Assembly (NCBI RefSeq): GCF_003434055.1
Contig: NZ_QVEX01000014.1
Coordinates: 1-64,000, forward strand
DNA length: 64,000 nt
Source of the DNA: Enterocloster aldenensis
GTDB lineage: Bacteria; Bacillota; Clostridia; Lachnospirales; Lachnospiraceae
Direction of reading: 5' to 3'
A program made the position numbers and the translations under genes. The notes below the pieces were generated by a model. It was not told where the DNA came from. It did not search any database and saw only the letters and a program-made list of their open reading frames with translations. Shown one piece after another: positions 37,791 through 55,881 of the stretch. How positions within the stretch are numbered: the stretch's first letter is position 1; each line of letters begins with the position of its first letter.

Positions 37791-37841
37791 GACAGACGGC
37801 TTACGGTCCGGAATCCGCCTCCCGCCCTGCATCAGCAGTTC

Positions 37842-39371
37842 TCAGTATAATTCTTCCAGAAGCTTATGGTCATTCAATTCCGCAGGCGGCAGGATGGCCT
37901 TCCTGTCAACCTTTGAATTCATGTTCCGCGGAAATGCCTCAAGTTGTATCAGGCAGGTGGGTATCATGTAATACGGTATCCTGTCTGCCAGCTTTTTCTT
38001 CAGGTCCTTTACATCCACCCTATGGTCCGCGGTAAAATACCCGCAGAGGATATTGCAGCCGCCGTCATCCATAAACGCCTTGACCACGGCTTCCTTTACA
38101 TCCCCGCTTTCCAGGATGGCTGTCTCCACTGCCCCGGACTCTACCCGGAACCCGCGGATTTTAAACATGTTATCCTTGCGGCACACATACTGGAGATTCC
38201 CGTCAGGAAGTTCCCTTAGGATATCGTTGGTCCTGAATACACGTTCATAGCCCGCTTCCTGCGAAAAAGGATTCCCAATGTAATGGGCCCGCGTCATTTC
38301 AGGCAGTCCGTAATAACCACGGCTCACCTGACGGCCGGCCAGCCACAGTTCCCCCGGTTCACCGGGACGGACCGGATTGCCTTCTTCATCCGTAATGTAT
38401 CCTTTCAGTCCATGATTCAGCCTCCCTACCGGATACACGGATTTTCCTCCGGCATCCTTAATCTCATAATGGGATATCATGGAACACATCTCAGAAGCCC
38501 CATACACATTAAAGATGCGGAACGGAGCCTTGCTAATATCCAGATTGCGCACAGGCTCGCTGCCCACCAGCAGCAGCCTGAGCGGGATTCCCTCCAGGTC
38601 CATGGCCAGAAGTTTCCTGGCCATGTGGGGCGGAAGGAATGTAATACATATCCCATGCATTCTGTAAAATTTTTCTAATTCAACTATATTTTTCCGGATG
38701 GTTCCCGGAATGATATAATTGGCTGCCCCAACCGCCAAGGTTGAAAATAGGTCGCTTACCGCGGCCACGAACCCGAATCCGGGGAATACCCCGAACCGTT
38801 CATGGGGCCTTGTGTCAAACACAGTGAAGTTATAGGCGGAGGCCATCACGTTCCGGTGTTCCAGCATGACACCCTTGGGCTTTGAGGTGGAACCTGAAGT
38901 ATAGATAAGCAGGGCCAGGCAGTTTCTCTTGGATAAGTTAATATCCGGCAGGAACATTTCCCTGTCTATCCCCTCCCACCACCGTCTGTCCAGGATGAAG
39001 CGGCACCGGCAATCCTTGATGATGTTCTCACTCCTTTCCTTTGGATAAGCCCTGTCCAGATACACATATGCACAGCCTGCTTTCCAAATACCCAGGATAC
39101 CGGCAATGGTTTCCGCGGTCCTTCCTGTGTTCACGGCAATGATTTCTTCCTTTGCGGCGCCGTCTTTAAGAAGACGGCCGGCAACCGCATTAGACCACCT
39201 TAAGATTTCCCTGTAGGTCACGGACCTGCCGTCCGCATAGACGGCGGTCCTGTCAGGGTATTGCGCGGCTGTCCCTGCGAACACATCACAGAACGTCTGA
39301 TGTTCCATGATGTCATCCCAGTGTTTTTTTAAGTATTCAGCTCTGTTTCCATCATCATATGTTTTTTTCAT
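37842..39371 (-). CDS. AMP-binding adenylate-forming enzyme
   Basis: About 509 residues of the ANL superfamily: core motifs [68 protein letters not shown], and a C-terminal lysine in [12 protein letters not shown]. The spacing resembles amino-acid adenylation or DltA-type domains more than fatty acyl-CoA synthetases, but no carrier-protein gene is near. It overlaps etfA by 17 bases (ATG at 39371; a TTG at 39377 is unlikely). Position suggests it primes the pathway by making the first CoA ester with ATP, as CarB does in caffeate respiration; this is inference. Confidence 0.78.
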
Positions 39372-40362
39372 TTGCAAACGCTTCCGCCATCATAGGGACA
39401 ATTTCATACAGGTCCCCTACCAGGCCGTAATCAGCCACCTCAAAGATAGGAGCCCTTGGGTTCTTGTTTATTGCTATAATGATATCAGATGACTGCATTC
39501 CTGCCAAGTGCTGGATTGCGCCGGATATGCCGCATGCAATATAAATCTTGGGTTTGACCGTGGTGCCGGTCTGTCCCACCTGATGGGAATGGTCAATCCA
39601 CCCTGCGTCCACGGCCGCCCTGGAAGCCCCTACAACCCCGCCCATTACGTCGGCCAGCTTCTGAATGACTGCAAAGCCCTCCGGGCTGCCCAGGCCGCGC
39701 CCTCCGGATACAATGACGTCCGCGTCCGTAAGGGATACGGTTTCCCTGGCGCTCTTTACGATTTCAAGCACCTTTGTCCTGATATCGGCTTCTGACAGCT
39801 CTACATCCACATCCACCACCTCGCCCTGGCGGCTGTGGTCCGGTTCCAGTTTCTGCATGACGCCGGGGCGCACCGTTGACATCTGGGGGCGGTGTTCCGG
39901 GCACACGATGGTGGCCATCAGGTTGCCGCCAAAAGCGGGGCGGGTCTGCATGATTTTTTTGTCCTCAGGGTCAATGTCCAGCCTGGTACAGTCCGCGGTC
40001 AGCCCCGTATTTACCCTGGCGGCAATCCTGGGCGCCAGGTCGCGGCCGATATGGGTTGCGCCGTAAAGCACGATTTCCGGCCTGTATTCCTGGATGGCGT
40101 CCGTGATTACCTTGGTATAGGCGTCCGTTGTATAGTTTTCCAGCAGGGGATGGTCAGCCACATATACCTTATCCGCGCCGTAACAGATCAGTTCCTTTGC
40201 AAGGCAGCCGATATCCCTGCCCAGAAGGATGGCGCATACGTCTGTTCCTATTTCCCCGGCCAGCTTTCTGCCCTCTCCTAAAAGTTCCCTTACCACAGGG
40301 GTAATCACTCCCTGCCTCTGCTCTGCAAATACCCAAACATTCCTGTATTGACTTAAGTCCAT
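39355..40362 (-). CDS. etfA: Electron transfer flavoprotein alpha subunit
   Basis: 335 residues. N-terminal nucleotide-binding-like domain, then the FAD domain [32 protein letters not shown] and [28 protein letters not shown]. There is no N-terminal ferredoxin domain, unlike CarE of Acetobacterium. It pairs with EtfB to carry electrons to or from the acyl-CoA dehydrogenase. Whether it bifurcates electrons cannot be judged by eye. Confidence 0.95.
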
Positions 40363-40376
40363 GTCCTACCTCCTAC

Positions 40377-41162
40377 TTAGATAATGTGTTTTTCTTTCAG
40401 GCAGCCCATTAATGCCGCGACCTGTTCCTTGGGGGTCCCGCCCAGCACGGTCCCCGCGCCCTTGGGTGCCGGGGTAAATGAACGGAACACCCTGGTAGGC
40501 GAGGACTTAAGCCCTACTTTTTCCTGCGGGACATCCACATCCCCAAATCCCCATACCGTGATTTCCTTGTCGTATGCCTCGTAGATTCCCTTCATGGTCA
40601 TGTATCTGGGCTTGTTCAGTTCCTTTACGGCAGTAAGGAAACATGGGGTCTGCACCCGGATTACCTCATATCCGTCTTCCAGCTGCCTCTGCACCACCAC
40701 TGCCCCGTCTTCCAGTTTAAAGTCCTGCACATATGTAACCTGGGGAATCCCAAGCTTTTCTGAAATCTGGGGGCCAACCTGGGCCGTATCCCCGTCAATG
40801 GCCTGGCGTCCTCCAAATATGATATCGTAGTCCCCTATTTTTTCTATGGCGGCAGAGATGGCATTGGAGGTGGCCCATGTGTCGGAGCCCCCGAATTCCC
40901 TTCCGCTTAAAAGGATGGCCTCATCCGCTCCCATGGCCAGGCATTCCCTTAGCATGACCTCTGCCTGGGGCGGTCCCATGGAAATGACGGTAACGGTCAC
41001 GTCCTCATATGCATCCTTTAATTTCAGTGCTTCCTCCAGCGCATTGGCATCATCCGGATTCAGGATGCTTTCCACGCCGTCCCTGATCAATGTTCCTTTT
41101 ACCGGGTCAATCTTTACTTCGTTTGTATTGGGAACCTGCTTTGCGCAAACAACTACCTTCAT
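40377..41162 (-). CDS. etfB: Electron transfer flavoprotein beta subunit
   Basis: 261 residues with the ETF-beta signatures MKVVVCAKQVPNTNEVKIDP, GADEAILLSGREFGGSDTWAT, GRQAIDGDTAQVGPQISEKLGIPQVTYV and KELNKPRYMTMKGIYEA. It lies between the acyl-CoA dehydrogenase and EtfA genes with spacings under 30 bases. Clostridial bifurcating complexes and the caffeyl-CoA reductase have the same order. Confidence 0.95.
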   Translation of the reverse strand: MKVVVCAKQVPNTNEVKIDPVKGTLIRDGVESILNPDDANALEEALKLKDAYEDVTVTVISMGPPQAEVMLRECLAMGADEAILLSGREFGGSDTWATSNAISAAIEKIGDYDIIFGGRQAIDGDTAQVGPQISEKLGIPQVTYVQDFKLEDGAVVVQRQLEDGYEVIRVQTPCFLTAVKELNKPRYMTMKGIYEAYDKEITVWGFGDVDVPQEKVGLKSSPTRVFRSFTPAPKGAGTVLGGTPKEQVAALMGCLKEKHII

Positions 41163-41188
41163 TATGTATCCTCCTTCTTATGCTTCTA

Positions 41189-42322
41189 TTACTTTCCCAG
41201 TATATGGTTGGCGATTACCACCCTCTGGATCTCCGATGTGCCCTCGTAGATTGCCACAAGCCTTGCATCCCTGAACATCCGCTCAATGGGATAATCTTTC
41301 ATGTAGCCATAGCCGCCGTGAAGCTGTAAGGAACGGTATGCAATGTTGTTGCACAGGTCGCCGCAGTAGTATTTGGCCATGGCCGCATTCTTGGAATAGG
41401 GCTGTCCTGCATCCTTAAGCCGGGCCGCATTGTAAACCAGCTGCCTTCCGCATTCCACCCTGGTTGCCATGTCCGCAATCTCAAACTGGGTGTTCTGAAG
41501 CTTGGCAATGGGTTTTCCGAACTGGACCCTTTCCTTTACATATTTGACCGCCTCGTCCAATGCGCCCTGGGCAATCCCCAGTCCCTGGGTAGCCACGGTG
41601 ATACGGCCTGAATCCAGGGTGGCCATACAGATTTTGAAGCCCTGCCCTTCCCCGCCTAACAGGTTTTCCTTTGGCACACGTACATTTTCAAAAATCAGGT
41701 CGCAGGTGGGCGAACCGTACATGCCCATCTTGTTCTCAACCGCTCCCGTGGAAAAACCTTCCCAGGACGACTCCACGATAAATGCGCTGATTCCCTTCAC
41801 GCCCCTGGCATCCACGTCCGTCTTGGCAAATACGGTGACAAAGTCACAGCAGGGCCCGTTGGTGATAAAGCATTTGCGGCCGTTTAGGATGTAATAATCC
41901 CCATCCTTCTGCGCGGTTGTGGTGATGGCCGCAGTGTCAGAACCCGCGCCAGGCTCCGTGATGGCAAATGCGCCAACCAGTTTTCCCTCCGCCATTCCCC
42001 TGAGGTATTTCTGCTTCTGGGCCTCATTGCCGAACATCATCAGGGCGCCCCCTGACAGGGAGTTGGGCATAAGCTGGGTGGAGACGCTGGCGTCCACCCT
42101 TGTAAATTCTTCCGTCACAATGGTAGCTGCCACGGTATCCCCTCCGCAGCCCCCATATTCCTTGGGAATCACGATTGCATGGAATCCGCAGTCAATGATT
42201 TTCCTGCGCAGTTCCTCCGGATACTCCCCTGTCTCATCAATCTGTGCCGCCAGGGGTGCGATTTCATTTTCTGCAAACTCTCTTGCCAGTTTCCGAATCA
42301 TTTCATGTTTTTTGCTGAACAT
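41189..42322 (-). CDS. Acyl-CoA dehydrogenase (enoyl-CoA reductase)
   Basis: 377 residues with the full short-chain acyl-CoA dehydrogenase layout: FAD/substrate motif GAFAITEPGAGSDTAAI, FITNGPCCDFVTVFAKT, and the C-terminal GGYGYMKDYPIERMFRDARLVAIYEGTSEIQ with catalytic Glu360. In a fermenter next to etfBA it most likely reduces an enoyl-CoA (crotonyl-CoA or analogue) to the saturated acyl-CoA. Chain-length preference is not readable. Confidence 0.93.
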   Translation of the reverse strand: MFSKKHEMIRKLAREFAENEIAPLAAQIDETGEYPEELRRKIIDCGFHAIVIPKEYGGCGGDTVAATIVTEEFTRVDASVSTQLMPNSLSGGALMMFGNEAQKQKYLRGMAEGKLVGAFAITEPGAGSDTAAITTTAQKDGDYYILNGRKCFITNGPCCDFVTVFAKTDVDARGVKGISAFIVESSWEGFSTGAVENKMGMYGSPTCDLIFENVRVPKENLLGGEGQGFKICMATLDSGRITVATQGLGIAQGALDEAVKYVKERVQFGKPIAKLQNTQFEIADMATRVECGRQLVYNAARLKDAGQPYSKNAAMAKYYCGDLCNNIAYRSLQLHGGYGYMKDYPIERMFRDARLVAIYEGTSEIQRVVIANHILGK

Positions 42323-42358
42323 TCCCTTTCCTCCTGTATCATTTCATTTTATGCTTTC

Positions 42359-43942
42359 TTACTCTTTGTCCATCAGGTCCTTAAGGCCGCCCCAGGTTTC
42401 ATTGAATATCTGCGCAGGCATCTGCTCCAGGTCCTCGCTGATCATGGGGGCAAAATCCATCTGGTCCAGTATATCCTTTTGAAGGTCCACGCCGGGCGCG
42501 ATTTCGGTAAGGAGGAGTCCGTCCTTTACCAGTTCGAACACGCACCGCTCCGTCACATAGATGATTTTCTTGCCCTGTTTAAGGGATGCCTCCCCGTTAA
42601 AGGAAATCTGCTCTATCTCTTTGACGAACTTCCTGGAGTTTCCTTCTTTTGTTACCTTGATATGGCCATTGCCGATTTCATAGGCAGGGCCTTCCCCTTT
42701 ATGAAGGCCGCCGGTAAAGGTTGCCGCGAACACCACCTTGCTGGCGCCTCCCGCCACATTCAGGAATCCGCCCACACCCAGGCCTTCCCCGTTGCGCTTG
42801 CTTACATTCACATTTCCGTTGGGCCCTACCTGGAGCACGCCCAGCACGCCCAGGTCCAGGGCCCCGCCGTCATACATGTCGAATTCATCCGCCATCTCAA
42901 TGGTGGCCTCCGCGTTCCAGCAGCACCCGAAATCATGGCTGCTGGCAGGAACCCCGCCAATGCCGCCCGCCTCGGTGGTAAGGGTAATGTAATCCCCGCA
43001 GCCCTCTTCGGCCGCAACCGAGGAAACTGCTTCCGGAATGCCCACGCCCAGGTTCACAATCGCGCCCTTTGTCAGTTCCATGGCAGCCCTTCTGGCAATC
43101 ACCTTCCTGGCGCTTAGCTTTTCAAATGGGATGGCATCCAGGGGAACCCTGATTTCACCTGAAAAAACAGGATTGTAATAGGTCTTGGAGGTCTGCCAGT
43201 GGTACTCTGGCTTGGATACGAACACATAGTCAATCAGGATACCGGGGACAACCACATCCCTTGGCTTGATGCTTCCCGCCTCAACAATATTCTCCACCTG
43301 GCAGATGACAATGCCGCCGCATGCCCTGGCAGCTTCTGCCGCGGATAACTGCCCCAGCTTATATCCTTCCTTGTAACAGGAGATATTTCCCTTTGTATCC
43401 GCAACCGTGCCCCTGATCAAGGTCACGTCCAGCTTGGGAAGCTTGTACCAGAGCCACTCCTCTCCCTGAAGTTCAATCAGCTCTACCAGAGGTTCGGCGT
43501 TCTTTGCCTTCTCATTCATGCAGCCGCCGTCCACCCTGGGATCCATCATGCTTTTTAAACCGATTTTAGTAATCACGCCCGGGGTGTGGGCAGCTATGTG
43601 GCGGCACATGACCGACATTACGCCCTGGGGGAAATTGTAAATCTCGCCTTTGTTGTCGCGGCTGAATTCAGTCATGGCCGGACCGCATCCGTTGAGATGC
43701 CCTCCCACGCCGCGTTTTAAGAACCCTTCGTGGGCCGCGTGGGCAAGCCCCCTGTCCCCCCTGTTCCCGGTGGCTGACTGCCAGTACATGGTCAGGTCCC
43801 TTGGATGCCCTGTTTCTAAAAAGCTCTTTTCCAGTTCCACCAGGGCTTCCTCTGCGAATCCGCCCAGGGTGATACCCGTATACATGATGGTATCCCCGTC
43901 CTTTATCAGCCTGCTTACTTCTTCTGCACGAATAACCTTCAT
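42359..43942 (-). CDS. Fused acyl-CoA:carboxylate CoA-transferase (Pct type)
   Basis: 527 residues, alpha and beta halves fused as in propionate CoA-transferase. The catalytic glutamate is Glu324 in TTEAGGIGG, followed by GGFLNVAGGASKVVFAATFTGG. An N-terminal glycine loop is TGITLGGFAEEAL. It would move CoA from the reduced end-product ester onto the incoming acid, saving ATP. First gene of the operon, about 60 bases downstream of the predicted sigma-54 start site. Confidence 0.92.
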   Translation of the reverse strand: MKVIRAEEVSRLIKDGDTIMYTGITLGGFAEEALVELEKSFLETGHPRDLTMYWQSATGNRGDRGLAHAAHEGFLKRGVGGHLNGCGPAMTEFSRDNKGEIYNFPQGVMSVMCRHIAAHTPGVITKIGLKSMMDPRVDGGCMNEKAKNAEPLVELIELQGEEWLWYKLPKLDVTLIRGTVADTKGNISCYKEGYKLGQLSAAEAARACGGIVICQVENIVEAGSIKPRDVVVPGILIDYVFVSKPEYHWQTSKTYYNPVFSGEIRVPLDAIPFEKLSARKVIARRAAMELTKGAIVNLGVGIPEAVSSVAAEEGCGDYITLTTEAGGIGGVPASSHDFGCCWNAEATIEMADEFDMYDGGALDLGVLGVLQVGPNGNVNVSKRNGEGLGVGGFLNVAGGASKVVFAATFTGGLHKGEGPAYEIGNGHIKVTKEGNSRKFVKEIEQISFNGEASLKQGKKIIYVTERCVFELVKDGLLLTEIAPGVDLQKDILDQMDFAPMISEDLEQMPAQIFNETWGGLKDLMDKE

Positions 43943-44014
43943 AGTCCTGCATCCTTTCTTGAATAAGTGAATATTAATAGTCTAATATTTATCATTCTTC
44001 TAACCTTTTTAATA

Positions 44015-44030
44015 AGCAAATTCCGTGCCA
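44015..44030 (-). promoter_or_regulatory. Sigma-54 promoter of the CoA-transferase operon
   Basis: The minus strand reads TGGCACG-GAAT-TTGCT, a full match to the -24/-12 consensus (TGGCAC/TTGC at the standard spacing). An enhancer-like palindrome lies about 115 bases upstream at 44145. Confidence 0.85.
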
Positions 44031-44144
44031 ACCGCGGCCCACGGATCCATATATAAAAAAGAAACAGAAATCAGGCCAAAAACACCATGCCTCATTCCTG
44101 CCTCTTTGATTTTCCGCAAAAACTATACATTCTGCTTTTAAATA

Positions 44145-44161
44145 TGTATAGTTTTTATACA
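44145..44161. promoter_or_regulatory. Enhancer palindrome TGTATA-N5-TATACA
   Basis: A perfect inverted repeat (TGTATA GTTTT TATACA) immediately after the enhancer-binding-protein gene and upstream of the 44015 promoter. A near-half site, TATACA, lies at 44124. It matches the palindrome at 52135, so it is probably the activator's binding site. Confidence 0.7.
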
Positions 44162-44162
44162 A

Positions 44163-45560
44163 TTATTTCAATCCGTATTTCTCCAGCTTTTCGTAAAACG
44201 ACCTGCGGGACAGTCCAAGTTCATTGATGGCCATGCTCTTGTTCCCATTGTTTCTTTTCAGCGCCCGCTGCATCATGCTTTTTTCCAGCCTTTCCACCGC
44301 ATCCTTCAGCCTGCATGGGCCATCCTCTGCCGGGCCGTCCTCCGCGCCGTCCCCTCTCAGATACTGGGGGAAATCCTTTATCTCCAGGATATCCCCTGTT
44401 TTAACAATCATCGCGTATTCTATCACATTCTGAAGTTCCCTTACATTGCCCGGCCAGCCGTATTCCTCCAGCATCCTGGCAGCGCCCGGCGTCAGGTCCG
44501 TGCTCTCGTCCCCGCCGTTCCTTTCTATGAAATAGCGCACCAGGGGCATGATATCCTCCCTCCGGTAACGCAGGGCAGGTATATGGATCGGAACCACATG
44601 AAGCCTGTAATAAAGGTCGCTGCGGAATTCATTTTTCTCAACCATTTCCTCCAGGTTCCGGTTGGTTGCCGCGATGACCCGCACGTCCAGTTTGATTGTC
44701 TTGGTGCCGCCCACCCGTTCCAGTTCCTTTTCCTGCAACACGCGCAGAAGCTTGGACTGCATGGTAAGGCTCATATCCCCGATTTCGTCCAGAAGGATGG
44801 TGCCTTTGTTGGCAAGCTCGAACTTGCCCAGCTTCCCGCCTTTTCTGGCCCCGGTAAAGGCGCCTTCCTCATAGCCGAACAGTTCGCTTTCCAGCAGGTT
44901 CTCAGGGATGGAGGCGCAGTTGACCTTAATCATGGGACGCTCCTTCCGGCTGCTGGCATTGTGGATGCACTTGGCCATGACCTCCTTGCCCACCCCGCTT
45001 TCCCCCTGTATCAAAATGGTACAGTTGGTATTGGCCACCTTGGCGGCCAGGCTCAGTGTTTTCTGCAGGTCCTTATTCTGGCTGATATAGGATTGGAAGG
45101 ATATGGGCAGCTCCGACGCCTCCAGCTGGGAGGCAAGATACTGGACCATCTCCTTGGACTTCTGAAGCTTCCTGGTCAGTTCCACCACATGGGTCACATC
45201 CTTAAAGATGGCGCAGGCCCCTACTTTCTCCTTACGGCTGTCATACAGCGGAAATGCAAGCCCCACTGAATCTATGTTCAGCGACTTTATGTACTCCACT
45301 TCATCGTTGTCCCTGCCTCCCCCGTCTTCCATGACCCTTAAGAGCTTGGCCTGGGGTTCAATGTCATAGAGGTTCCTTCCCATCAGTTTTTCCAGCTTTA
45401 TGTTCATATGTTCCGCATAGAACCGGTTGATATAGACCACCGTGCCCTTGCAGTCAATGATAATCACTGCATTATCCGCATTCTCCAGTATTTCCAGCAG
45501 TATCTGCGCGTCCCATTCCTTAAAATACGCTGTGGTCATCAGCCTAGATTCCAGTGACAT
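44163..45560 (-). CDS. PAS-containing sigma-54 enhancer-binding protein
   Basis: 465 residues. A PAS sensor domain (about 20-125; AVIIIDCKGTVVYINRFYAEHMNI) is followed by a helical linker and an AAA+ domain: Walker A GESGVGKE (186-193), the sigma-54 contact loop GAFTGA (233-238), Walker B LLDEIGD. The C-terminal Fis-type helix-turn-helix is NKSMAINELGLSRRSFYEKLEKY. It activates RNA polymerase with sigma-54. The start follows GGGGAG; the frame opens nine codons earlier. Five sigma-54 promoters lie within 8 kb, so it is almost certainly the local activator, with PAS sensing the substrate, a CoA ester or redox state. Confidence 0.93.
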   Translation of the reverse strand: MSLESRLMTTAYFKEWDAQILLEILENADNAVIIIDCKGTVVYINRFYAEHMNIKLEKLMGRNLYDIEPQAKLLRVMEDGGGRDNDEVEYIKSLNIDSVGLAFPLYDSRKEKVGACAIFKDVTHVVELTRKLQKSKEMVQYLASQLEASELPISFQSYISQNKDLQKTLSLAAKVANTNCTILIQGESGVGKEVMAKCIHNASSRKERPMIKVNCASIPENLLESELFGYEEGAFTGARKGGKLGKFELANKGTILLDEIGDMSLTMQSKLLRVLQEKELERVGGTKTIKLDVRVIAATNRNLEEMVEKNEFRSDLYYRLHVVPIHIPALRYRREDIMPLVRYFIERNGGDESTDLTPGAARMLEEYGWPGNVRELQNVIEYAMIVKTGDILEIKDFPQYLRGDGAEDGPAEDGPCRLKDAVERLEKSMMQRALKRNNGNKSMAINELGLSRRSFYEKLEKYGLK

Positions 45561-45623
45561 AGTTTTTTCTCCCCGGTGTGATTTCATTCCATCTTATTGT
45601 TAATTTTTTACCAACCAAAGTAT

Positions 45624-45652
45624 AGTATACCTACTTTTTTATGCAATTTCAA
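45624..45652 (-). promoter_or_regulatory. Sigma-A promoter of the enhancer-binding-protein gene
   Basis: TTGAAA, 17 bases, TATACT on the minus strand, about 65 bases before the start. The activator itself therefore seems to be made by housekeeping sigma, as is usual. The rest of 45653-45909 shows no gene. Confidence 0.7.
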
Positions 45653-45909: not shown

Positions 45910-47241
45910 TTACACAATCCCAAATTGTGCAATAATCGAAAGGCAGATGGCCACAATCAGCGGAATGATGACCGAACACACTCCCATTGGGCGGTATCCC
46001 ACCCTGTGGGGCAGCCTGGCCTGGGTCAGCTCGTTAATGATGGTTCCATTACTTGGAAGGGAATCCAGGCCGCCGGAACAGATGGTTGCAATCCTGTGCA
46101 CTACCTGTGGGTTCATGGCAAGCCCGCCTTCTGAAAGCGGCCCAATGAACCGGTCCGCCAATGCGTTCAGCGCAATGGTCAGTCCGCCTGCCGAAGACCC
46201 GGCCACACCGGCCGCAATATTAACAGCAACCACTACCTGGAATTCTCCGGGTCCGGGAATCCTGCCCAGGGCGCTGCATATAAGGGCGAACCCACTGGTA
46301 ACTCCTACAACGGAACCAAAGGCAATTACCATGGATGCGGTACAGACAGAGTTGATGGACTGCATGGCCCCGCGCTTAAATGTCTCTATCTTAGCTGACA
46401 TCCGCTTCCAGTAGACAACGTATCCCACAAGGATCCCAAAGGTTGCCGCAATATAAACCGGCTGTTTAAACACGTTCAGTGTGACAATCAGGACAATGGA
46501 AGGGATCAGACAGGTAAGGATGTTCATTTCCTGGAAATCATCATCCGCCACTTTTAACTGCACCTTGGCAATCTCCGCTCCCGTGGGCAGGAATCCTTCA
46601 TGGTTTTTCTCAACCTGCCTGATTTCCCACTTAAAGTAGATGCCGGCCAGGAAAACCGCAATCAGGCAGCCTATGATGCCCAGGGCGGGCGCTGCCATTG
46701 CATTGGTGCCAAGGGCTTCTCCTGCAATTACATTGTTGACCGAAGGAGAGCCGGGCGCCATGGTAAGGGCAAGTACGCCTGCGCCTAAGATATTGACCCC
46801 GTAAAGCCTCCACGGCACGTCCAGTTCCTCAAACATTTCCTTTGCAACTGCAATCACGGTAAAGAATGCCACGAATACGCTGACGCCGCCATACCCCAGG
46901 ATAAAGGATAATGCAGCCAGTGACCATAAGGCCATCAGTTTTTCTTTTCCAGGGAATTTCCTGGCAATCCGGCCGAACTTAAGGCCAATGGACTTGGCTG
47001 CGCCGCTGTCCCCCATCATGGCCCCGAATATGGCGCCTGTAAACATGGTCAGGAAATACTTCTGGATGAATCCCGCCATTCCCTCCATGTACGCGCCGCT
47101 CATGCCCGAGGCAATATCCAGGCCGCTTGTAACCAGGACCAGGATGGATACCATGGGCGCCACAATGACAGCGGGAATGCCTTTGTAGCAGGTGTAAATC
47201 AATAATGCCACTGCCAGAAGAATACCTATAATACTTACCAT
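45910..47241 (-). CDS. GntP-family permease
   Basis: 443 residues with about twelve membrane helices. GntP signatures include GAIFGAMMGDSGAAKSIGLK, FILGYGGVSVFVAFFTVIAVAKE, LTMAPGSPSVNNVIAGEALGTN and GVAGSSAGGLTIALNAL. The family imports gluconate and short hydroxy-acids such as 3-hydroxybutyrate by proton symport. A private sigma-54 promoter precedes it, which marks it as the uptake system of the island. In Pseudomonas a GntP permease also sits under a sigma-54 activator in hydroxybutyrate use. Confidence 0.88.
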   Translation of the reverse strand: MVSIIGILLAVALLIYTCYKGIPAVIVAPMVSILVLVTSGLDIASGMSGAYMEGMAGFIQKYFLTMFTGAIFGAMMGDSGAAKSIGLKFGRIARKFPGKEKLMALWSLAALSFILGYGGVSVFVAFFTVIAVAKEMFEELDVPWRLYGVNILGAGVLALTMAPGSPSVNNVIAGEALGTNAMAAPALGIIGCLIAVFLAGIYFKWEIRQVEKNHEGFLPTGAEIAKVQLKVADDDFQEMNILTCLIPSIVLIVTLNVFKQPVYIAATFGILVGYVVYWKRMSAKIETFKRGAMQSINSVCTASMVIAFGSVVGVTSGFALICSALGRIPGPGEFQVVVAVNIAAGVAGSSAGGLTIALNALADRFIGPLSEGGLAMNPQVVHRIATICSGGLDSLPSNGTIINELTQARLPHRVGYRPMGVCSVIIPLIVAICLSIIAQFGIV

Positions 47242-47360: not shown

Positions 47361-47376
47361 AGCAAGATTACTGCCA
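47361..47376 (-). promoter_or_regulatory. Sigma-54 promoter of the GntP permease gene
   Basis: The minus strand reads TGGCAGT-AATC-TTGCT, about 120 bases before the start codon. Confidence 0.75.
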
Positions 47377-47467: not shown

Positions 47468-47492
47468 CCGGGCCGGATAACTGTTACCTTTT

Positions 47493-49475: not shown

Positions 49476-49550
49476 AATTCCTCCTGACAAAAAGGCTGCC
49501 GTAACCTGTTTGACGGCAGCCTGAACTTTAACTTGAGAGTATTTCCAACA

Positions 49551-50342
49551 TTAATTACATGTGGTCCCCATATCAGCGGCAATATAAGCGCCCGTGACAA
49601 TGCTGGAGGCATCCGATGCCAGGAAAAGGGCCACTGCCGCCACTTCCCAGATTTCACCCAGGCGTTTTAACGCTGTCTTGGCAAGGATCTGTTCCCTTAC
49701 CCTTGGTATAGCCAGAGGCGCCGCGTTAATGGCCGTGGGAACATATCCCGGACAGATTGCATTGGCCGTTATGCCGTAGCGCCCCCACTCCATGGCCTCT
49801 GTCTTGGAAAGGCTTATGACGCCGGACTTGGAAGCACAGTATGCCGCGATGTTCTTGGTTCCCACCAGGCCGCCTGCGGAGGAAATGTTGATGACCCTTC
49901 CCTTGGTTTCCTTTTCAATCATGACCTTGGCAGCTTCCGCGCCGCAGATGAACACGCCCTTTAAGTCCGTGTCCACTACTTCATCCCACTCTTCATCGCT
50001 CATTTCCACAATCCGCTTCGTGATTCCGATTCCGGCGTTGCAGACCATGGTGTCCAGCCTGCCAAAGGTTTCCACGGTCTTGCTGACCATGGCCCGGACC
50101 TCTGCGCGGTTCCTTACGTCTGCTTTAAATGGGATAGCGGTTCCCCCCATCTCATTAATCTCGTCTGAAACACGTCTGCAGTCCTCTTCCTCCAGACCGT
50201 TAATCACCACCTTGGCGCCGTATGCGCAGAAGGCCACCGCCATGCCGTATCCCAGCCCGGTGGTGCTTCCCGTGATTATGGCAACCTTCCCGGTCAAATC
50301 AAATGTAGGGATTTCAAATGGCGTATTTTTCATTTCAATCAT
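49551..50342 (-). CDS. Short-chain dehydrogenase/reductase
   Basis: 263 residues of a classical SDR: cofactor loop TGSTTGLG (24-31), NAG (102-104), catalytic Ser154/155, Tyr168 and Lys172 (YCASK), and a C-terminal GAYIAADMG. The closest feel is gluconate 5-dehydrogenase/FabG-like. In this island it probably interconverts a hydroxy and oxo group on the substrate. The start follows AAAGGAG. The gap to the reductase gene is 75 bases, without a terminator. Confidence 0.9.
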   Translation of the reverse strand: MIEMKNTPFEIPTFDLTGKVAIITGSTTGLGYGMAVAFCAYGAKVVINGLEEEDCRRVSDEINEMGGTAIPFKADVRNRAEVRAMVSKTVETFGRLDTMVCNAGIGITKRIVEMSDEEWDEVVDTDLKGVFICGAEAAKVMIEKETKGRVINISSAGGLVGTKNIAAYCASKSGVISLSKTEAMEWGRYGITANAICPGYVPTAINAAPLAIPRVREQILAKTALKRLGEIWEVAAVALFLASDASSIVTGAYIAADMGTTCN

Positions 50343-50413
50343 AGCTTTTTCTCCTTTTTCATGTTAAATTCGTTTACTTCGTCAGTTTCTGCATGGTTTT
50401 ATTTGCGCCCTCA

Positions 50414-51103: not shown

Positions 51104-51185
51104 CTGACACCCCCTTGTTTCATTTAATCCGCACGTAGAGGCCAGGCGCTTTTATTGGAGCCTGCGCCTCATGCCAATTTTAAAC

Positions 51186-51201
51186 AGCAATTTTGATGCC
51201 A
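51186..51201 (-). promoter_or_regulatory. Sigma-54 promoter of the YczE/SDR/enoate reductase operon
   Basis: The minus strand reads TGGCATC-AAAA-TTGCT. Only a TGTATA half-site (51207-51212) is seen close upstream; a full palindrome was not found here. Confidence 0.7.
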
Positions 51202-51235
51202 ACCTGTGTATATCCGACCAGATGGAGCACTGTCC

Positions 51236-52036
51236 CTACATCCAGGTTAAATCCAGCTTTTTCCTGGGCGCACTGCGCATATACGAAATAAGCGGATAGC
51301 CCATGGCAATGGCCATTACCATGGATTCATCCTCTGTTATCCCCAACATTTCCTTTAACTTACTGCTGTTATCCACAGCGTCCCCAAAAAAGCCGTTGAT
51401 ACAGGAGCCAATCCCCATGGTTTCAGCCATCAGCTGGATGTATGCAGACGCCAGCCCTCCGTCCTTTTTCACATTGAACCCTTTTTTCTTATTCCCGATT
51501 ACTAATATAAGGAGGGGCGCCCCATAGAACAGTATGTCATTGCCCTTCAGGCTCTCCTTATAAATCCTCCCGTAGGCAGGCGCATAAAATCCCGGTTTCT
51601 CTGCCAGGCCGCCCAGGACGCGGGCCGCCTCCCCGGTCACCTCATCCATATGTCCGCACACCGCTATGTAGCGCAGGGCCTGCCTGTTACCTCCCGTGCC
51701 CGCATATCTGGCCCCATCCAGTATGGCTTCAATCTCCTGCCTGGAGGGTATCTTCTGTCTGTAGGCGCGGATACTCCTGCGAAGCACCATCCTGTTTTTC
51801 ATTTCCTCCGGCGATGCCAGAGGGGTATCCGGCGTCATTTCCACGGACTCGCTGTTGTCATATCGGTCCGTGCACACAGCTTTCTGCGGGCAGACAGCCA
51901 TGCAGTGGGCGCAGGTCATACACCTCTTTTCTCCTTTAAATACCGCCTTTTCCTCCTCCATGACAATACATGCCATGGAACATACCTTAACGCATACACC
52001 GCATCCGGTGCACAGGTCCTTATTGATATGGATCAT
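51236..52036 (-). CDS. Ferredoxin-nitroreductase fusion protein
   Basis: 266 residues. An N-terminal 2[4Fe-4S] ferredoxin domain has two CxxCxxCxxxC sets (Cys9/12/15/19 and Cys39/42/45/49). A nitroreductase FMN domain follows (RRSIRAYRQKIPSRQEIEAILDGARYAGTGGNRQALRYI, YIQLMAETMGIGSCINGFFG). It would pass electrons between ferredoxin-type carriers and an FMN substrate site. Controlled by its own sigma-54 promoter, divergent from the dehydratase genes, it may use reduced ferredoxin made by the Etf complex or keep the radical dehydratase reduced. Confidence 0.88.
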   Translation of the reverse strand: MIHINKDLCTGCGVCVKVCSMACIVMEEEKAVFKGEKRCMTCAHCMAVCPQKAVCTDRYDNSESVEMTPDTPLASPEEMKNRMVLRRSIRAYRQKIPSRQEIEAILDGARYAGTGGNRQALRYIAVCGHMDEVTGEAARVLGGLAEKPGFYAPAYGRIYKESLKGNDILFYGAPLLILVIGNKKKGFNVKKDGGLASAYIQLMAETMGIGSCINGFFGDAVDNSSKLKEMLGITEDESMVMAIAMGYPLISYMRSAPRKKLDLTWM

Positions 52037-52089
52037 TTACCTGTCTCCTTTCCCATTGCCACTCAATTGTTCCGTATATTTTTTATACC

Positions 52090-52105
52090 CGCAAATCCCA
52101 CGCCA
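52090..52105 (-). promoter_or_regulatory. Sigma-54 promoter of the ferredoxin-nitroreductase gene
   Basis: The minus strand reads TGGCGTG-GGAT-TTGCG. The expected start site falls near 52078, inside another TGTATA-like palindrome (CGTATA-N5-TATACC, 52073-52089). Confidence 0.7.
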
Positions 52106-52134
52106 ACCTTATATCACACTGCGTCATGTTTTTT

Positions 52135-52151
52135 TGTATACTTTTTATACA
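52135..52151. promoter_or_regulatory. Shared enhancer palindrome TGTATA-N5-TATACA
   Basis: A perfect inverted repeat (TGTATA CTTTT TATACA) between two divergent sigma-54 promoters (52090 minus and 52224 plus). A further TATACA half-site lies at 52177. Together with 44145 it defines the putative activator site. Confidence 0.75.
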
Positions 52152-52223
52152 AGTTTTTAGATGACCATGCCCTTTTTATACAGTCCCATCCCCCAAATCC
52201 CCTGATTTCCGCTTCCTGATATC

Positions 52224-52239
52224 TGGCACAATTCTTGCT
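52224..52239 (+). promoter_or_regulatory. Sigma-54 promoter of the dehydratase operon
   Basis: TGGCACA-ATTC-TTGCT on the plus strand, about 90 bases before the first AbfD-like gene and about 75 bases past the enhancer palindrome. Confidence 0.82.
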
Positions 52240-52328
52240 CTTTAAATCATGGTGTAAGGGCCCAAGACCATGGCGCTCCATAAATGGCAAAAATTTAACA
52301 AGTAAAAAAATGAAGGAGGAATATAGGA

Positions 52329-53939
52329 ATGGGAATTGGAACTTATGAACAATACAAGGAACGGCTCCTCAAAATGAAACCCAATGTTTATTTAAATGGA
52401 AAATGTGTTGACCGCTCCAATGGGAAAGAAGGCGCTGAAAGGGATCTGGCTGACTGGATTAAAGGCGGGACCTATGTAATGAAACAGTGCTATGACGTTG
52501 CCAATAACCCCAGATATGAGGATGTATGTGTGACCACTTCCCATATTACAGGAGACAAAATCAACCGCTGCACCCATATCCACCACAGCATGGATGACCT
52601 GCTGAAGAAACAGCTGATGACACGCCTGATCTGCCAGCACGTGGGCGGATGTATGCAGCGCTGCATGGGCACGGACGCCATGAACGCACTGTTTTCCGTT
52701 ACCTATGACTGTGACCAGGCCTGCGGCACAGAGTACCACAAACGTCTGGTCAAATACATTGAATACTGCCAGAAGGATGATTTAATCTGCAACTGCGCGC
52801 AGACCGATGTAAAAGGTTCCCGCAACCCCAAATACAAACGCGCCCACATGCAGCCTGACCCGGATTCCTTTGTACACGTGATAGATACAGATGTGGACGG
52901 CGTGGGTGTGGACGGAAAACCATGTAAGGGCATCCTTGTCCGCGGCGCCAAGATCTGCAACTCCTGCGCTCCTTACGTGGATGAAATCATTGTTAACCCA
53001 ACCAAGTTCATGAGCCAGGATGACAGTGATTATGCGGTGGCCTTCGCGCTTCCGGCTGACTGGGACGGCATCAAGCTGATGGCCCTTCCCGGGCTGCACC
53101 ATAAGCGTACCCATCTGGACGCGCCCTATGCCAATATCGGGGATGTGGAAAGCCTGACCATATTCGATGACTGCTTCGTGCCCTATGACCGGGTATTCAT
53201 GTGCGGCCGCGACCATGAAGGTGTTGCCCGTTACGCTGGTTATCTGGCCCTGATGTTCGCACATTACCACCGCCATTCCTACACCGGATGTAAGACCGCT
53301 GTATCCGAGGTCATTGCATCCCAGGCAGCCCTGGTGGCCGATGTCAACGACATTGCCAGGGAATCCCATGTACGTGAAAAAATCTGCGATATCATCCAGA
53401 CAGCGGAGCTGGTATTCGCGGCAGGCGAGGCAGCCGCCCACCATGCAACCCAATTCCCATCCGGCCAATGGGTTCCGGATGAAGTGCTGACCAATGCGGG
53501 ACGCCGCCTGGCAGGACACAACATGTACCATGAATATGAGACCCTGGCAGACCTGACCGGCGGTGTCTGCGCATCCCTTCCAACGGAAGAAAGCTTCTTT
53601 GCGCCGGAAACAGCAGAACTGTGCAATAAGTATATACTCCGCAATCCCGCCTACAGCGCAGAGGATACGCACCGGGTCATGCGGATGATGGAAAACAAGC
53701 TGTGCGACTCCTACGAGGCTGCCCAGGCAGTGGCAGGCGTGCACGGCGGCGGTTCCCCACTGATGGAAACCATCACCCTTATGAGCCGTTATGACCTGGA
53801 AGAACTGAAGAAAATCGCAAAATACCTGGCCGGGCTTCCCGGATATGAGAAATGCCCGCGCTATGAGCGCAGCGCCCACACAGCAACCCCAAGGGCCATG
53901 CTTGCCAAATTCGATGCAGTAGCAGCTAAAAAACAATAA
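52329..53939 (+). CDS. AbfD-type [4Fe-4S]/FAD acyl-CoA dehydratase, copy 1
   Basis: 536 residues of the HpaB/4-hydroxybutyryl-CoA dehydratase family. The four cluster ligands known from clostridial AbfD (Cys99, Cys103, His292, Cys299) have clear counterparts: Cys108 and Cys112 in GGCMQRCMGTDAMNALF, and His314 and Cys321 in YHRHSYTGC. The active-site tyrosine (Tyr318) is also present. It is therefore a radical dehydratase rather than a monooxygenase. It is about 45 residues longer than AbfD (about 490), with an extra segment near residue 30-45 and more cysteines, so the substrate may differ. The start follows GAAGGAGG. Strongly expressed-looking codon use. Confidence 0.88.
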   Translation: MGIGTYEQYKERLLKMKPNVYLNGKCVDRSNGKEGAERDLADWIKGGTYVMKQCYDVANNPRYEDVCVTTSHITGDKINRCTHIHHSMDDLLKKQLMTRLICQHVGGCMQRCMGTDAMNALFSVTYDCDQACGTEYHKRLVKYIEYCQKDDLICNCAQTDVKGSRNPKYKRAHMQPDPDSFVHVIDTDVDGVGVDGKPCKGILVRGAKICNSCAPYVDEIIVNPTKFMSQDDSDYAVAFALPADWDGIKLMALPGLHHKRTHLDAPYANIGDVESLTIFDDCFVPYDRVFMCGRDHEGVARYAGYLALMFAHYHRHSYTGCKTAVSEVIASQAALVADVNDIARESHVREKICDIIQTAELVFAAGEAAAHHATQFPSGQWVPDEVLTNAGRRLAGHNMYHEYETLADLTGGVCASLPTEESFFAPETAELCNKYILRNPAYSAEDTHRVMRMMENKLCDSYEAAQAVAGVHGGGSPLMETITLMSRYDLEELKKIAKYLAGLPGYEKCPRYERSAHTATPRAMLAKFDAVAAKKQ

Positions 53940-53960
53940 AAATAAAGGAAGGTACGAACC

Positions 53961-55580
53961 ATGGCAATCGGTACATACGAGCAATATAAAGAACGTCTGT
54001 TAAAAATGAAACCCAACGTATACATGAATGGAAAATGCATGGACCGTTCCAACGGCAAGGAAGGCCCGGAAAGGGACCTGGCTGACTGGATGAAAGGCGG
54101 GACCTATGTAATGAAGCAGTGCTACGACACTGCCAATGACCCTGATTATGCAGATGTCTGTGTGACCACGTCCCATATTACCGGGGAACCCATCAACCGC
54201 TGCACCCATATCCATCACAGCCAGGAGGACCTGCTGAAAAAACAGCTGATGACCCGTTTAATCTGCCACCGGGTAGGCGGATGCATGCAGCGCTGCATGG
54301 GCACGGACGCCATGAACGCCCTGTTTTCCGTCACCTATGACTGTGACCAGGCCTGCGGTACAGAGTACCACAAACGGCTGTTGAACTACATTGAATACTG
54401 CCAGAAATATGACCTGGTCTGCAACTGTGCCCAGACAGACGTAAAAGGCTCCCGTAATCCCAAATACAAACGCGCCCACATGCAGCCCGACCCTGACTCC
54501 TTTGTCCATGTGGTTGAAACAGATGTGGACGGCATAGGTACAGACGGAAAGCCATGTAAGGGCATCATTGTCCGCGGCGCCAAGATCTGCAACTCCAATG
54601 CCCCTTATGTAGACGAAATCATTGTAAACCCCACCAAATTCATGGGACCGGATGACGCGGATTACGCGGTTGCATTTGCCCTTCCCGGAGACTGGGACGG
54701 TGTGAAGCTCATGGCCCTTCCAGGACTGCACCACAAACGCACCCATATCGAAGCACCCTTTGCAAACATCGGCGATGTAGAAAGCCTTACCATATTTGAC
54801 GACTGCTTCGTTCCCTATGACCGGGTATTCATGTGCGGCCGCGACCATGAAGGGGTTGCGCGCTACGCAGGTTACCTTGCCCTGATGTTCGCACACTACC
54901 ACCGTCATTCCTACACAGGATGCAAGACCGCTGTTTCCGAGGTAATCGCATCCCAGGCAGCCCTGGTGGCCGATGTAAATGACATTGCGCGTGAATCCCA
55001 TGTCCGGGAAAAAATCTGTGATATCATCCAGACAGCAGAGCTTGTCTTTGCAGCCGGGGAAGCGTCCGCCTATCACTCAACCAAGTTCCCCTCCGGGCAG
55101 CAGGTTCCGGATGAAGTGCTGACCAATGCCGGCCGCCGTCTGGCAGGACACAACATTTACCATGAATATGAGACCCTGGCCGACCTGACCGGAGGCGTAT
55201 GCGCATCCCTTCCAACCGAAGAAAGCTTCTACGCCCCTGAAACAGCAGACCTGTGCCACAAATACATCCTCCGCAACCCGGCCTACAGCCCGGAAGACAC
55301 CCACCGTGTCATGCGCATGATGGAAAATAAACTCTGCGACTCCTACGAAGCCGCCCAGGCAGTAGCAGGCGTGCACGGAGGCGGTTCCCCGCTCATGGAA
55401 ACCATCACCATGATGGGCCGCTATGACCTGGAAGAGCTTAAGAAAATCGCAAAATACCTGGCAGGCCTGAAAGGCTACGACGAATGCCCAAGGTACGAGC
55501 GCAGCGCCCACACAGCAACCCCAAGGGCCATGCTTGCCAAATTCGACGCAATGGCAGCCGCAAAAAAAGAAGCCAAATAA
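53961..55580 (+). CDS. AbfD-type [4Fe-4S]/FAD acyl-CoA dehydratase, copy 2
   Basis: 539 residues, a tandem paralogue of the preceding gene with the same numbering of Cys108, Cys112, His314, Tyr318 and Cys321. Long stretches are identical (for example MCGRDHEGVARYAGYLALMF and the following 60 residues). Differences cluster in the first 150 residues and near residue 213 (NSN for NSC). The gene begins 22 bases after the first copy. The two may form a hetero-oligomer or act on related substrates. No inactivating change is seen in either. Confidence 0.88.
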   Translation: MAIGTYEQYKERLLKMKPNVYMNGKCMDRSNGKEGPERDLADWMKGGTYVMKQCYDTANDPDYADVCVTTSHITGEPINRCTHIHHSQEDLLKKQLMTRLICHRVGGCMQRCMGTDAMNALFSVTYDCDQACGTEYHKRLLNYIEYCQKYDLVCNCAQTDVKGSRNPKYKRAHMQPDPDSFVHVVETDVDGIGTDGKPCKGIIVRGAKICNSNAPYVDEIIVNPTKFMGPDDADYAVAFALPGDWDGVKLMALPGLHHKRTHIEAPFANIGDVESLTIFDDCFVPYDRVFMCGRDHEGVARYAGYLALMFAHYHRHSYTGCKTAVSEVIASQAALVADVNDIARESHVREKICDIIQTAELVFAAGEASAYHSTKFPSGQQVPDEVLTNAGRRLAGHNIYHEYETLADLTGGVCASLPTEESFYAPETADLCHKYILRNPAYSPEDTHRVMRMMENKLCDSYEAAQAVAGVHGGGSPLMETITMMGRYDLEELKKIAKYLAGLKGYDECPRYERSAHTATPRAMLAKFDAMAAAKKEAK

Positions 55581-55590
55581 GAGGTAATCC

Positions 55591-55881
55591 ATGAGCGAAG
55601 AACTGAAAAAAGACATTGAAGCAGTCCTGAACCTCTTCGTCCGCCCCCAGTTATCCAGCCACGGGGGCGGGCTGGAGGTATTGGATTTAGACGAAAACGG
55701 GATTCTCTGGATTGAGATGCAGGGAGAATGCGCCGGCTGCCCCTCAGCCGACGAAACAGCCAAAAACCTGGTCCAAAAAGAACTTATCACCCGCATCTCT
55801 CAGATAAAAGGCGTAGAAATCGATTCCGGAATCAGCGATGAGATTCTTGCAGAAGCCATGAAGCTGTTTACACATGGGTGA
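55591..55881 (+). CDS. NifU-like Fe-S scaffold domain protein
   Basis: 96 residues equal to the C-terminal NifU domain, with CxxC Cys47/Cys50 in GECAGCPSADETAKN. It starts 11 bases after the second dehydratase gene. Such proteins hold and deliver [4Fe-4S] clusters, so here it probably matures the two cluster-dependent dehydratases. Replacement of the more usual general location by this operon is notable. Confidence 0.88.
   Translation: MSEELKKDIEAVLNLFVRPQLSSHGGGLEVLDLDENGILWIEMQGECAGCPSADETAKNLVQKELITRISQIKGVEIDSGISDEILAEAMKLFTHG

What the first reader, a model, noticed from the sequence alone, without database searches (positions are those of the whole stretch)
37842..55881. A self-contained sigma-54 regulon for fermenting an unknown acid
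Five readable -24/-12 promoters (44015 minus, 47361 minus, 51186 minus, 52090 minus, 52224 plus) all match TGGCA-N7-TTGC spacing. They precede every transcription unit of an 18-kb island that also encodes the PAS/AAA+/Fis activator. The units cover uptake (GntP), CoA transfer, radical dehydration, enoyl-CoA and enoate reduction, an SDR, a ferredoxin-nitroreductase and Fe-S maturation. I know of no described pathway with this exact set.
Basis: partly seen in the sequence, partly recalled or inferred. Interest (0 to 1): 0.88.

Follow-up and report, generated by a model that had tools for sequence, protein, structure and literature searches.

The report
Sigma-54 switch for hydroxy-acid fermentation genes
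A gut-type bacterium carries one block of genes, apparently switched on together by its own sensor protein, that probably takes up a still unidentified hydroxy-acid and removes its hydroxyl group with a pair of closely related iron-sulfur/flavin enzymes.

Summary
Both motifs recur at the matching places in three relatives, and rpoN is in 6 of 6 carrier genomes tested. So this is a local sigma-54 regulon by sequence; the activator gene itself has no such site. Its parts are not new in kind: PMC6615313 lists cotY-gntT-bcd-etfAB (XcgR) and abfD-nifU (XanR) regulons. The enzymes suggest uptake, CoA activation, radical dehydration and enoyl reduction of a hydroxy-acid, most likely a C4-substituted 4-hydroxy-acid; the substrate is unproven. 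The dehydratase belongs to an uncharacterised subfamily related to AbfD: Fe-S ligands kept, AbfD Glu455 replaced by Ala in 120 of the 120 best-scoring homologues (of 2061). It comes in Cys213 and Asn213 forms; 20 of 24 genomes with two or more readable copies hold both, the most novel element.

The parts
37842..39377 (-). stand-alone AMP-binding (NRPS-adenylation-like) enzyme, probable acid-CoA ligase
   Evidence: PF00501 7.5e-64; TIGR01733 280 bits, cut-off 317; orthologues 93% (L083), 65% (L082), 62% (L084)
39355..40362 (-). EtfA-like electron transfer flavoprotein subunit
   Evidence: PF01012/PF00766; NF042970 below cut-off
40377..41162 (-). EtfB-like subunit
   Evidence: PF01012; NF040731 over its cut-off
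41189..42322 (-). acyl-CoA dehydrogenase/enoyl-CoA reductase
   Evidence: best PDB matches 5ol2 and CarC 6fah; AcrC model NF042972 504 bits, cut-off 640
42359..43942 (-). class I CoA transferase, YdiF/FadX type
   Evidence: 2ahu YdiF 2.9e-110
44016..44030 (-). sigma-54 promoter of the CoA transferase operon, TGGCACGGAATTTGC
   Evidence: exact match; identical in L003, exact in L062, exact before the CoA transferase remnant of L001
44145..44161 (.). enhancer-like palindrome TGTATA-N5-TATACA, 115 bp upstream of the promoter
   Evidence: exact; exact in L003, L062, L001; distance
44163..45587 (-). sigma-54 activator: PAS, AAA+ with GAFTGA, Fis HTH
   Evidence: PF00158, PF02954, PF00989; GAFTGA visible in the translation
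45910..47241 (-). GntP-family permease
   Evidence: PF02447 5.1e-07, over cut-off
47362..47376 (-). sigma-54 promoter of gntP, TGGCAGTAATCTTGC
   Evidence: exact; exact in L003 and L062
47451..47467 (.). enhancer-like palindrome, one mismatch
   Evidence: same with one mismatch in L003, two-mismatch copies in L062
47493..49490 (-). OYE/2,4-dienoyl-CoA-reductase-like enoate reductase
   Evidence: 1ps9 2.3e-85
49551..50342 (-). short-chain dehydrogenase
   Evidence: PF13561
50414..51103 (-). YczE/DUF6198 membrane protein
   Evidence: PF19700
51187..51201 (-). sigma-54 promoter of the YczE-SDR-OYE operon, TGGCATCAAAATTGC; nearest palindrome upstream about 870 bp away
   Evidence: exact; conserved in L003, L062, L001
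51236..52036 (-). 2[4Fe-4S] ferredoxin fused to nitroreductase
   Evidence: PF00881 plus Fer4
52091..52105 (-). sigma-54 promoter of the ferredoxin-nitroreductase, TGGCGTGGGATTTGC (one mismatch)
   Evidence: L003 and L062 counterparts are exact
52135..52151 (.). shared enhancer-like palindrome between the divergent promoters
   Evidence: exact; exact in L003, one mismatch in L062 and L001
52224..52238 (+). sigma-54 promoter of HpaB1-HpaB2-NifU, TGGCACAATTCTTGC
   Evidence: exact; conserved in L003, L062, L001
52329..53939 (+). radical-dehydratase-like HpaB1 (Cys213 form)
   Evidence: 1u8v 4.9e-81; model best match 1u8v; ligands C108, C112, H314, C321
53961..55580 (+). radical-dehydratase-like HpaB2 (Asn213 form), 90% identical to HpaB1
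   Evidence: identity; residue 213
55591..55881 (+). small NifU-like Fe-S carrier with CxxC
   Evidence: PF01106 5.5e-19; sequence

Best explanation
The island is a local sigma-54 regulon. A PAS-domain activator (44163-45587) senses the acid or a derivative (inferred), binds TGTATA-N5-TATACA enhancers (inferred from position and conservation) and opens five sigma-54 promoters (predicted). The products import a hydroxy-acid (GntP), load it with CoA (class I CoA transferase, with the adenylating enzyme as primer), dehydrate it with an AbfD-like FAD/[4Fe-4S] ketyl-radical dehydratase made in two forms (HpaB1, HpaB2) and given its cluster by the small NifU, and reduce the enoyl/dienoyl product with acyl-CoA dehydrogenase-EtfAB and the OYE; the SDR oxidises or reduces a hydroxyl/keto group. 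CoA then returns to the next acid, so the island works as an organic-acid electron sink like the acrylate or caffeate systems. The likeliest substrate class is a 4-hydroxy-acid carrying a substituent at C4, the open form of a gamma-lactone (for example aryl-hydroxyvalerates from flavan-3-ols; the example is recalled). Promoter motifs and gene families are shown by sequence; enhancer function, reaction order and substrate are inferred.
For: Promoters exact and placed before the target units. Palindromes near four of five promoters; only two exact copies in 64 kb. In the 6.5-Mb genome of L003 the exact palindrome has 4 places, 2 in the island (reversed control 2); in that of C. citroniae 2, one in the island; in that of L062 1, in the island (both controls 0). 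The 3 exact copies outside the islands have no sigma-54 site within 400 bp. Recurrence of promoters and palindromes in L003, L062, L001. In L003's genome 123 exact sigma-54 motifs (reversed control 30), 6 of them within 8.4 kb of the island, one of those six inside the SDR gene. rpoN in 6 of 6 carriers tested. Activator has GAFTGA. Enzyme families. AbfD fold: Foldseek top hit 1u8v, TM 0.74/0.81. Fe-S ligands in 49 of 49 locus sequences. Elsewhere HpaB sits with crotonase, 3HCDH and thiolase. Hydrolase genes of lactonase-like families lie beside it: PTE-family in L035, L037, L057, L006 and L050, the Sporomusa L037 one closest to PTE-type hydrolases such as 4h9u and DR0930, and MBL-fold in L045 and L033.
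Against: No expression, binding or substrate data. No palindrome (up to 3 mismatches) between 47467 and 52073, so the 51187 promoter has none closer than about 870 bp upstream. AbfD Glu455, catalytic by my recollection, is Ala here, so the chemistry may differ; that loop is low-confidence in the model, and the Foldseek rmsd to 1u8v is large, 11.8. No lactonase was recognised inside the window island. That the PTE relatives are lactonases is recalled, not from a call. 10 of 18 HpaB loci scanned show no exact sigma-54 site before the cluster: L005, L007, L009, L010, L035, L037, L008 (only a one-mismatch site), L002 and L004 (contig begins too late to show it), L006 (probable site, see report).
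Confidence: 0.6

Rival explanations
1. Hydroaromatic dehydroxylation: the island strips hydroxyls from quinate or shikimate as CoA esters, towards cyclohexanecarboxylate, as rumen and gut communities are recalled to do.
For: GntP-type uptake, SDR, OYE, AcDH-Etf and two dehydratases would suit a polyol acid; many carriers are rumen or deer MAGs by record title; spirochaete loci L040, L043 and L051 hold a crotonase that resembles (recalled) the ring-opening 6-oxocamphor hydrolase; a cyclohexanol dehydrogenase is among the 8 PDB matches of the C. citroniae SDR.
Against: No quinate-specific enzyme was recognised among the proteins scanned; the PTE and MBL neighbours are unexplained; listings of three literature searches showed no such gene cluster.
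Confidence: 0.2
2. Plain 4-hydroxybutyrate metabolism: HpaB1/2 are ordinary 4-hydroxybutyryl-CoA dehydratases feeding a butyrate pathway, as suggested for XanR and XcgR regulons in PMC6615313.
For: Closest solved relative is C. aminobutyricum AbfD; the paper's label is Butyrate/Butanol synthesis.
Against: Glu455 is Ala in the 120 best-scoring homologues and in 46 of 49 locus sequences (2 gaps, 1 Pro); the neighbour of the T190 position differs in two recurrent forms; SDR and OYE are unneeded; 32% identity to AbfD in the structural alignment.
Confidence: 0.12
3. Carnitine or gamma-butyrobetaine catabolism: HpaB eliminates trimethylamine or water from a 4-substituted butyryl-CoA.
For: The class III CoA transferase of the Sporomusa locus L037 is nearest the L-carnitine CoA-transferase model, 229 bits against a cut-off of 413; an analogous C4 elimination is described for BbuA (PMC8364193, passages).
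Against: GntP rather than a betaine transporter; class I CoA transferase in the window; BbuA is an acyl-CoA-dehydrogenase-like enzyme with about 10% identity to 4HBD.
Confidence: 0.05
4. The promoters are chance matches and the genes are run from ordinary sigma-70 promoters.
For: Over the whole window, 17 of 400 simulations reach four exact matches.
Against: All four exact matches lie in 1455 intergenic bases of the island (simulated mean 0.016) and recur in three relatives.
Confidence: 0.03

Closest known systems
XcgR sigma-54 regulon, cotY-gntT-bcd-etfAB (PMC6615313, Table 1)
   Same: CoA transferase, GntP-type permease, acyl-CoA dehydrogenase and EtfAB under sigma-54; activator motif of the form TGT-(10-12)-ACA, which TGTATA-N5-TATACA fits (spacer 11)
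   Different: Here with HpaB pair, NifU, SDR, OYE, ferredoxin-nitroreductase, YczE and ligase, and the shared genes lie in two operons; orthology of the activator not tested (supplement not available)
XanR sigma-54 regulon, abfD-nifU-hyp-ach-golB (PMC6615313, Table 1)
   Same: AbfD-family gene next to nifU under sigma-54
   Different: XanR is listed among groups with a distinct motif; here two genes of a divergent subfamily and other partners
4-hydroxybutyryl-CoA dehydratase AbfD, C. aminobutyricum (1u8v)
   Same: Fold, C-x3-C and H-x6-C cluster ligands, E257, Y296 and K300 equivalents
   Different: Glu455 to Ala, Thr190 to Ser, Gly191 to Cys or Asn; two forms
Acrylate (Pct/AcrCBA) and caffeate (CarA-E) systems
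   Same: CoA transferase plus enoyl-CoA reductase-Etf; NCBIfam Acr models hit below cut-off, CarC among best PDB hits
   Different: No lactyl-CoA dehydratase seen; EtfA lacks the extra ferredoxin domain recalled for CarE; AbfD-like dehydratase instead

Membership tests
sigma-54 regulon | -24/-12 elements with canonical spacing before target units | tested here: met
   four exact sites and one with a mismatch; positional significance; activator gene has none
sigma-54 regulon | activator with AAA+ GAFTGA loop and Fis HTH | tested here: met
sigma-54 regulon | enhancer-type motif upstream of promoters (sequence only) | tested here: met
   palindromes near four of five promoters, recurring in relatives; none near 51187; binding untested
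sigma-54 regulon | rpoN in the genome | tested here: met
   6 of 6 carrier genomes; the window's own genome is not held
sigma-54 regulon | transcription starts at the predicted sites, rpoN dependence | not testable with these tools
   needs experiment
AbfD (4-hydroxybutyryl-CoA dehydratase) | HpaB/AbfD fold | tested here: met
   (TM 0.74/0.81; rmsd 11.8)
AbfD (4-hydroxybutyryl-CoA dehydratase) | [4Fe-4S] ligands C99, C103, H292, C299 | tested here: met
   49 of 49 locus sequences; 117-120 of 120 listed homologues, the rest gaps
AbfD (4-hydroxybutyryl-CoA dehydratase) | Glu455 (catalytic by recollection) | tested here: not met
   Ala469 in 120 of 120 listed homologues, 46 of 49 locus sequences with 2 gaps and 1 Pro; mapping
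AbfD (4-hydroxybutyryl-CoA dehydratase) | dehydration of 4-hydroxybutyryl-CoA | not testable with these tools
   needs enzyme assay
XcgR regulon | cotY-gntT-bcd-etfAB targets and TGT-(10-12)-ACA motif | tested here: inconclusive
   same families and motif form, but only gene names of XcgR targets were seen, and the genes lie in two operons here
XcgR regulon | orthologous activator | not tested

The most novel reading that the evidence does not exclude
HpaB1/HpaB2 are a new two-form radical dehydratase system: paralogues recurrently split at one residue (Cys213 in one, Asn213 in the other, next to the AbfD Thr190 position) in several separate lineages, because the two forms work together (heteromer, two successive dehydrations, or the two stereoisomers) on C4-substituted 4-hydroxyacyl-CoA, opening an undescribed anaerobic route for gamma-lactone-type plant metabolites in gut and rumen.
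Probability: 0.3. Interest if true: 0.75.

Novelty: new variant of a known kind. Interest (0 to 1): 0.56.

Why it matters
It gives a concrete, testable switch (palindrome, activator, five promoters) that can be used to find the inducer, and so the substrate, of an uncharacterised radical-dehydratase subfamily whose carriers, by record title, include rumen and soil MAGs, Sporomusa, spirochaetes and C. citroniae (a human gut species, recalled). If the two-form pattern reflects function, it would show how ketyl-radical dehydratases diversify by one pocket residue.

Tried and rejected
Class-wide search for HpaB: 1 of 391 genomes, the centre genome itself, so of no use for context. Literature for a quinate, gut HpaB or valerolactone gene cluster: searches showed no matching pathway (listings and abstract starts only; one listed 15 of 35 papers). 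Benzene-activation paper PMC13101534 followed because it names 4HBD: in the passages seen only an analogy. HpaB as an oxygen-dependent monooxygenase rejected because the cluster ligands are invariant. Substrate from SDR relatives in the PDB: not informative (window SDR: a (3R)-hydroxyacyl-CoA dehydrogenase, glucose 1-dehydrogenases and FabG types; C. citroniae SDR: dihydroanticapsin 7-dehydrogenase, FabG types, a cyclohexanol dehydrogenase). Ferredoxin-nitroreductase: only weak nitroreductase and ferredoxin matches. Rfam (37000-57000) and tRNA scans: 0 matches. My greedy ORF caller put antisense ORFs in some loci; the tblastn maps were used instead. I first mapped AbfD T190 to Cys210 (note, label); re-reading one search gives Ser212, which the report uses. 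In one search the 20 of 20 at residue 213 is by selection; the informative count is 20 of 24.
Full report
Observation. The five promoters are real sequence features. TGGCA-N6-TTGC occurs exactly four times in the 64-kb window, at 44016(-), 47362(-), 51187(-) and 52224(+), all between genes of this island; the fifth, at 52091(-), differs by one base. Simulation on the 1455 intergenic bases gives a mean of 0.016 exact sites against 4 seen; on the whole window the bare count is not remarkable (17 of 400 simulations reach 4), so it is placement that counts. The activator gene 44163-45587 has no such site, so 'every unit' is slightly too strong.

TGTATA-N5-TATACA occurs exactly at 44145 and 52135 only, with a one-mismatch copy at 47451 and a two-mismatch copy at 52073. 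The copies at 44145, 47451 and 52135 lie 115 bp from the CoA transferase promoter, 75 bp from the GntP promoter, and 30 and 73 bp from the ferredoxin-nitroreductase and HpaB promoters, which share 52135. The YczE promoter (51187) has none nearer than about 870 bp upstream; in C. citroniae, where no ferredoxin-nitroreductase was found in the stretch seen, the YczE promoter lies next to the shared palindrome (L001). The motif fits the TGT-(10-12)-ACA form described for XcgR, PrdR and others.

Conservation. Exact sites precede all five units in L003 (Clostridiales 1_7_47_FAA) and in L062 (a Lachnospiraceae MAG), and four places in L001 (C. citroniae), with palindromes of 0-2 mismatches beside most of them. 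L003 is close to the window (95-99% protein identity for most island genes), so L062 and L001 carry the weight. Alignments show the boxes standing out from diverged flanks in the HpaB/ferredoxin-nitroreductase region; in the CoA transferase and GntP regions the L062 promoter boxes were not placed in register by the aligner, though exact boxes are present there. Of 18 loci scanned, 8 have an exact site before the HpaB cluster (L001, L003, L028, L033, L036, L045, L050, L062). L006 probably has one: an exact site at 1984, next to the start of the first gene after its activator. L005, L007, L009, L010, L035 and L037 have none, L008 has only a one-mismatch site before its permease, L002 begins inside the first HpaB copy and L004 just before the second. 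rpoN (PF04552) is in 6 of 6 carrier genomes. In the L003 genome the exact promoter motif occurs 123 times (reversed control 30), 6 of them within 8.4 kb of the island, one of those six inside the SDR gene. The exact palindrome has 4 places there, 2 in the island (reversed control 2); 2 in C. citroniae (1 in the island, control 0) and 1 in L062's genome (in the island, control 0). The three outside copies have no sigma-54 site within 400 bp.

Same slot, changing cassette. Flanking genes are shared by the window, L003 and C. citroniae: polyphosphate kinase on one side, an MBL-fold gene and a VanR/VanS-like pair on the other; the stretch beside the island in the MAG (L084) matched none of the latter. 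In the stretch seen, C. citroniae keeps HpaB1/2, NifU, YczE, AcDH-EtfBA, ligase and activator; no GntP, OYE or ferredoxin-nitroreductase was found, and it has another SDR, a DUF5058 protein with a further membrane-looking protein, and a class III CoA transferase with its own exact sigma-54 site. Downstream of the old promoter and palindrome it still holds a shortened remnant of the class I CoA transferase, 59% identical over 149 residues. The activator's N-terminal/PAS part is less conserved (59-64%) than AAA+ (85-88%) and HTH (76%) in L001 and L062.

Enzymes. Families are and PDB relatives. The HpaB proteins are related to AbfD: the model (mean pLDDT 86.9) best matches 1u8v (TM 0.74/0.81, rmsd 11.8). 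By the alignment, AbfD C99, C103, H292, C299, E257, Y296 and K300 are kept (49 of 49 locus sequences; near-invariant in the 120 homologues listed out of 2061), whereas T190 is Ser212 (120 of 120; 47 Ser and 2 Thr of 49) and E455 is Ala469 (120 of 120; 46 Ala, 1 Pro, 2 gaps of 49). The model is weak around 463-471. The catalytic roles of E455 and T190 are recalled.

Two forms. Residue 213, beside Ser212, is Cys in HpaB1 and Asn in HpaB2. Of 49 genomes readable at 213 (the window counted as one; MAG contigs grouped by isolate name), 24 have two or more copies, and 20 of these hold both Cys and Asn; exceptions are U.6_13 (C,C), Sporomusa KB1 and S. silvacetica (N,N) and JB007 (N,I). Among the 20 pairs the next most often differing columns with full coverage (153, 186, 233) differ in 15. 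Of 10 loci with two neighbouring copies on one strand, both readable, 9 have the Cys copy first and one has two Cys copies; L013 and L038 (second copy too short), L037 (copies 5 kb apart) and L043 (opposite strands) are left out. In a tree of 66 rows the Cys label needs 11 changes, at least 9 forced by well-supported branches, although it is more clustered than shuffled labels (mean 19.2, 0 of 500 as low): within several lineages Cys and Asn copies form neighbouring subclades, so the split recurs. That fits repeated duplication with convergence, or an old pair homogenised except here; the data do not separate these. Among the 120 listed homologues, 213 is N 62, C 38, I 15, A 5.

Substrate. Elsewhere HpaB sits in SDR-HpaB-SDR-crotonase-3HCDH-thiolase clusters (for example L012, L018, L028; L045 without a thiolase hit), with AcDH/Etf and class III CoA transferase (L036, L037), and beside PTE-type (L035, L037, L057, L006, L050) or MBL-type (L045, L033) hydrolases. 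The Sporomusa L037 PTE protein is closest to PTE-type hydrolases such as 4h9u and DR0930; that these are lactonases is recalled. AbfD chemistry (removal of a C4 hydroxyl from an acyl-CoA), lactonase-like neighbours, and Ala where AbfD has Glu455 suggest C4-substituted 4-hydroxyacyl-CoA. This is inference; quinate/shikimate remains a serious rival.

Prior work. PMC6615313 (abstract, sections 6, 7 and 9, and search passages seen; its supplement was not) predicts sigma-54 regulons XcgR (cotY-gntT-bcd-etfAB) and XanR (abfD-nifU-hyp-ach-golB), labelled butyrate/butanol synthesis. The island joins both kinds with further enzymes. No paper describing this combination showed in the listed part of searches, which cover open-licence PMC papers only.

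Verdict. The regulon is well supported by sequence; the pathway outline is plausible; the substrate is open. It is a new variant of a known kind, with the two-form dehydratase as the most novel element.

Noticed in passing
window 52329-55580 and loci: HpaB paralogues come as Cys213/Asn213 pairs in 20 of 24 genomes with two or more readable copies, and the split recurs in several lineages of the tree.
   Followed up: partly
L001:2771-3535(-): Shortened remnant of a class I CoA transferase downstream of a retained sigma-54 site and palindrome in C. citroniae, which has a class III CoA transferase instead.
   Followed up: yes
G001 and G003 (genomes of L003 and L062): Two sigma-54 DNA-binding-domain genes each in long open frames, so two RpoN paralogues may exist.
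   Followed up: no
L040, L043, L051: Spirochaete HpaB loci hold a crotonase-family protein (73-92% identical to the L040 copy) that looks (recalled) like the ring-opening 6-oxocamphor hydrolase.
   Followed up: partly
window 34874-36704: Two-component pair scoring best, below cut-off, to VanS/VanR-type models; no resistance genes were looked for.
   Followed up: no
window 36831-37790(+): MBL-fold hydrolase converging on the island end and conserved in L003 and C. citroniae; it may or may not belong to the pathway.
   Followed up: no
window 56411-60411: Polyphosphate kinase and exopolyphosphatase-like genes border the island.
   Followed up: no
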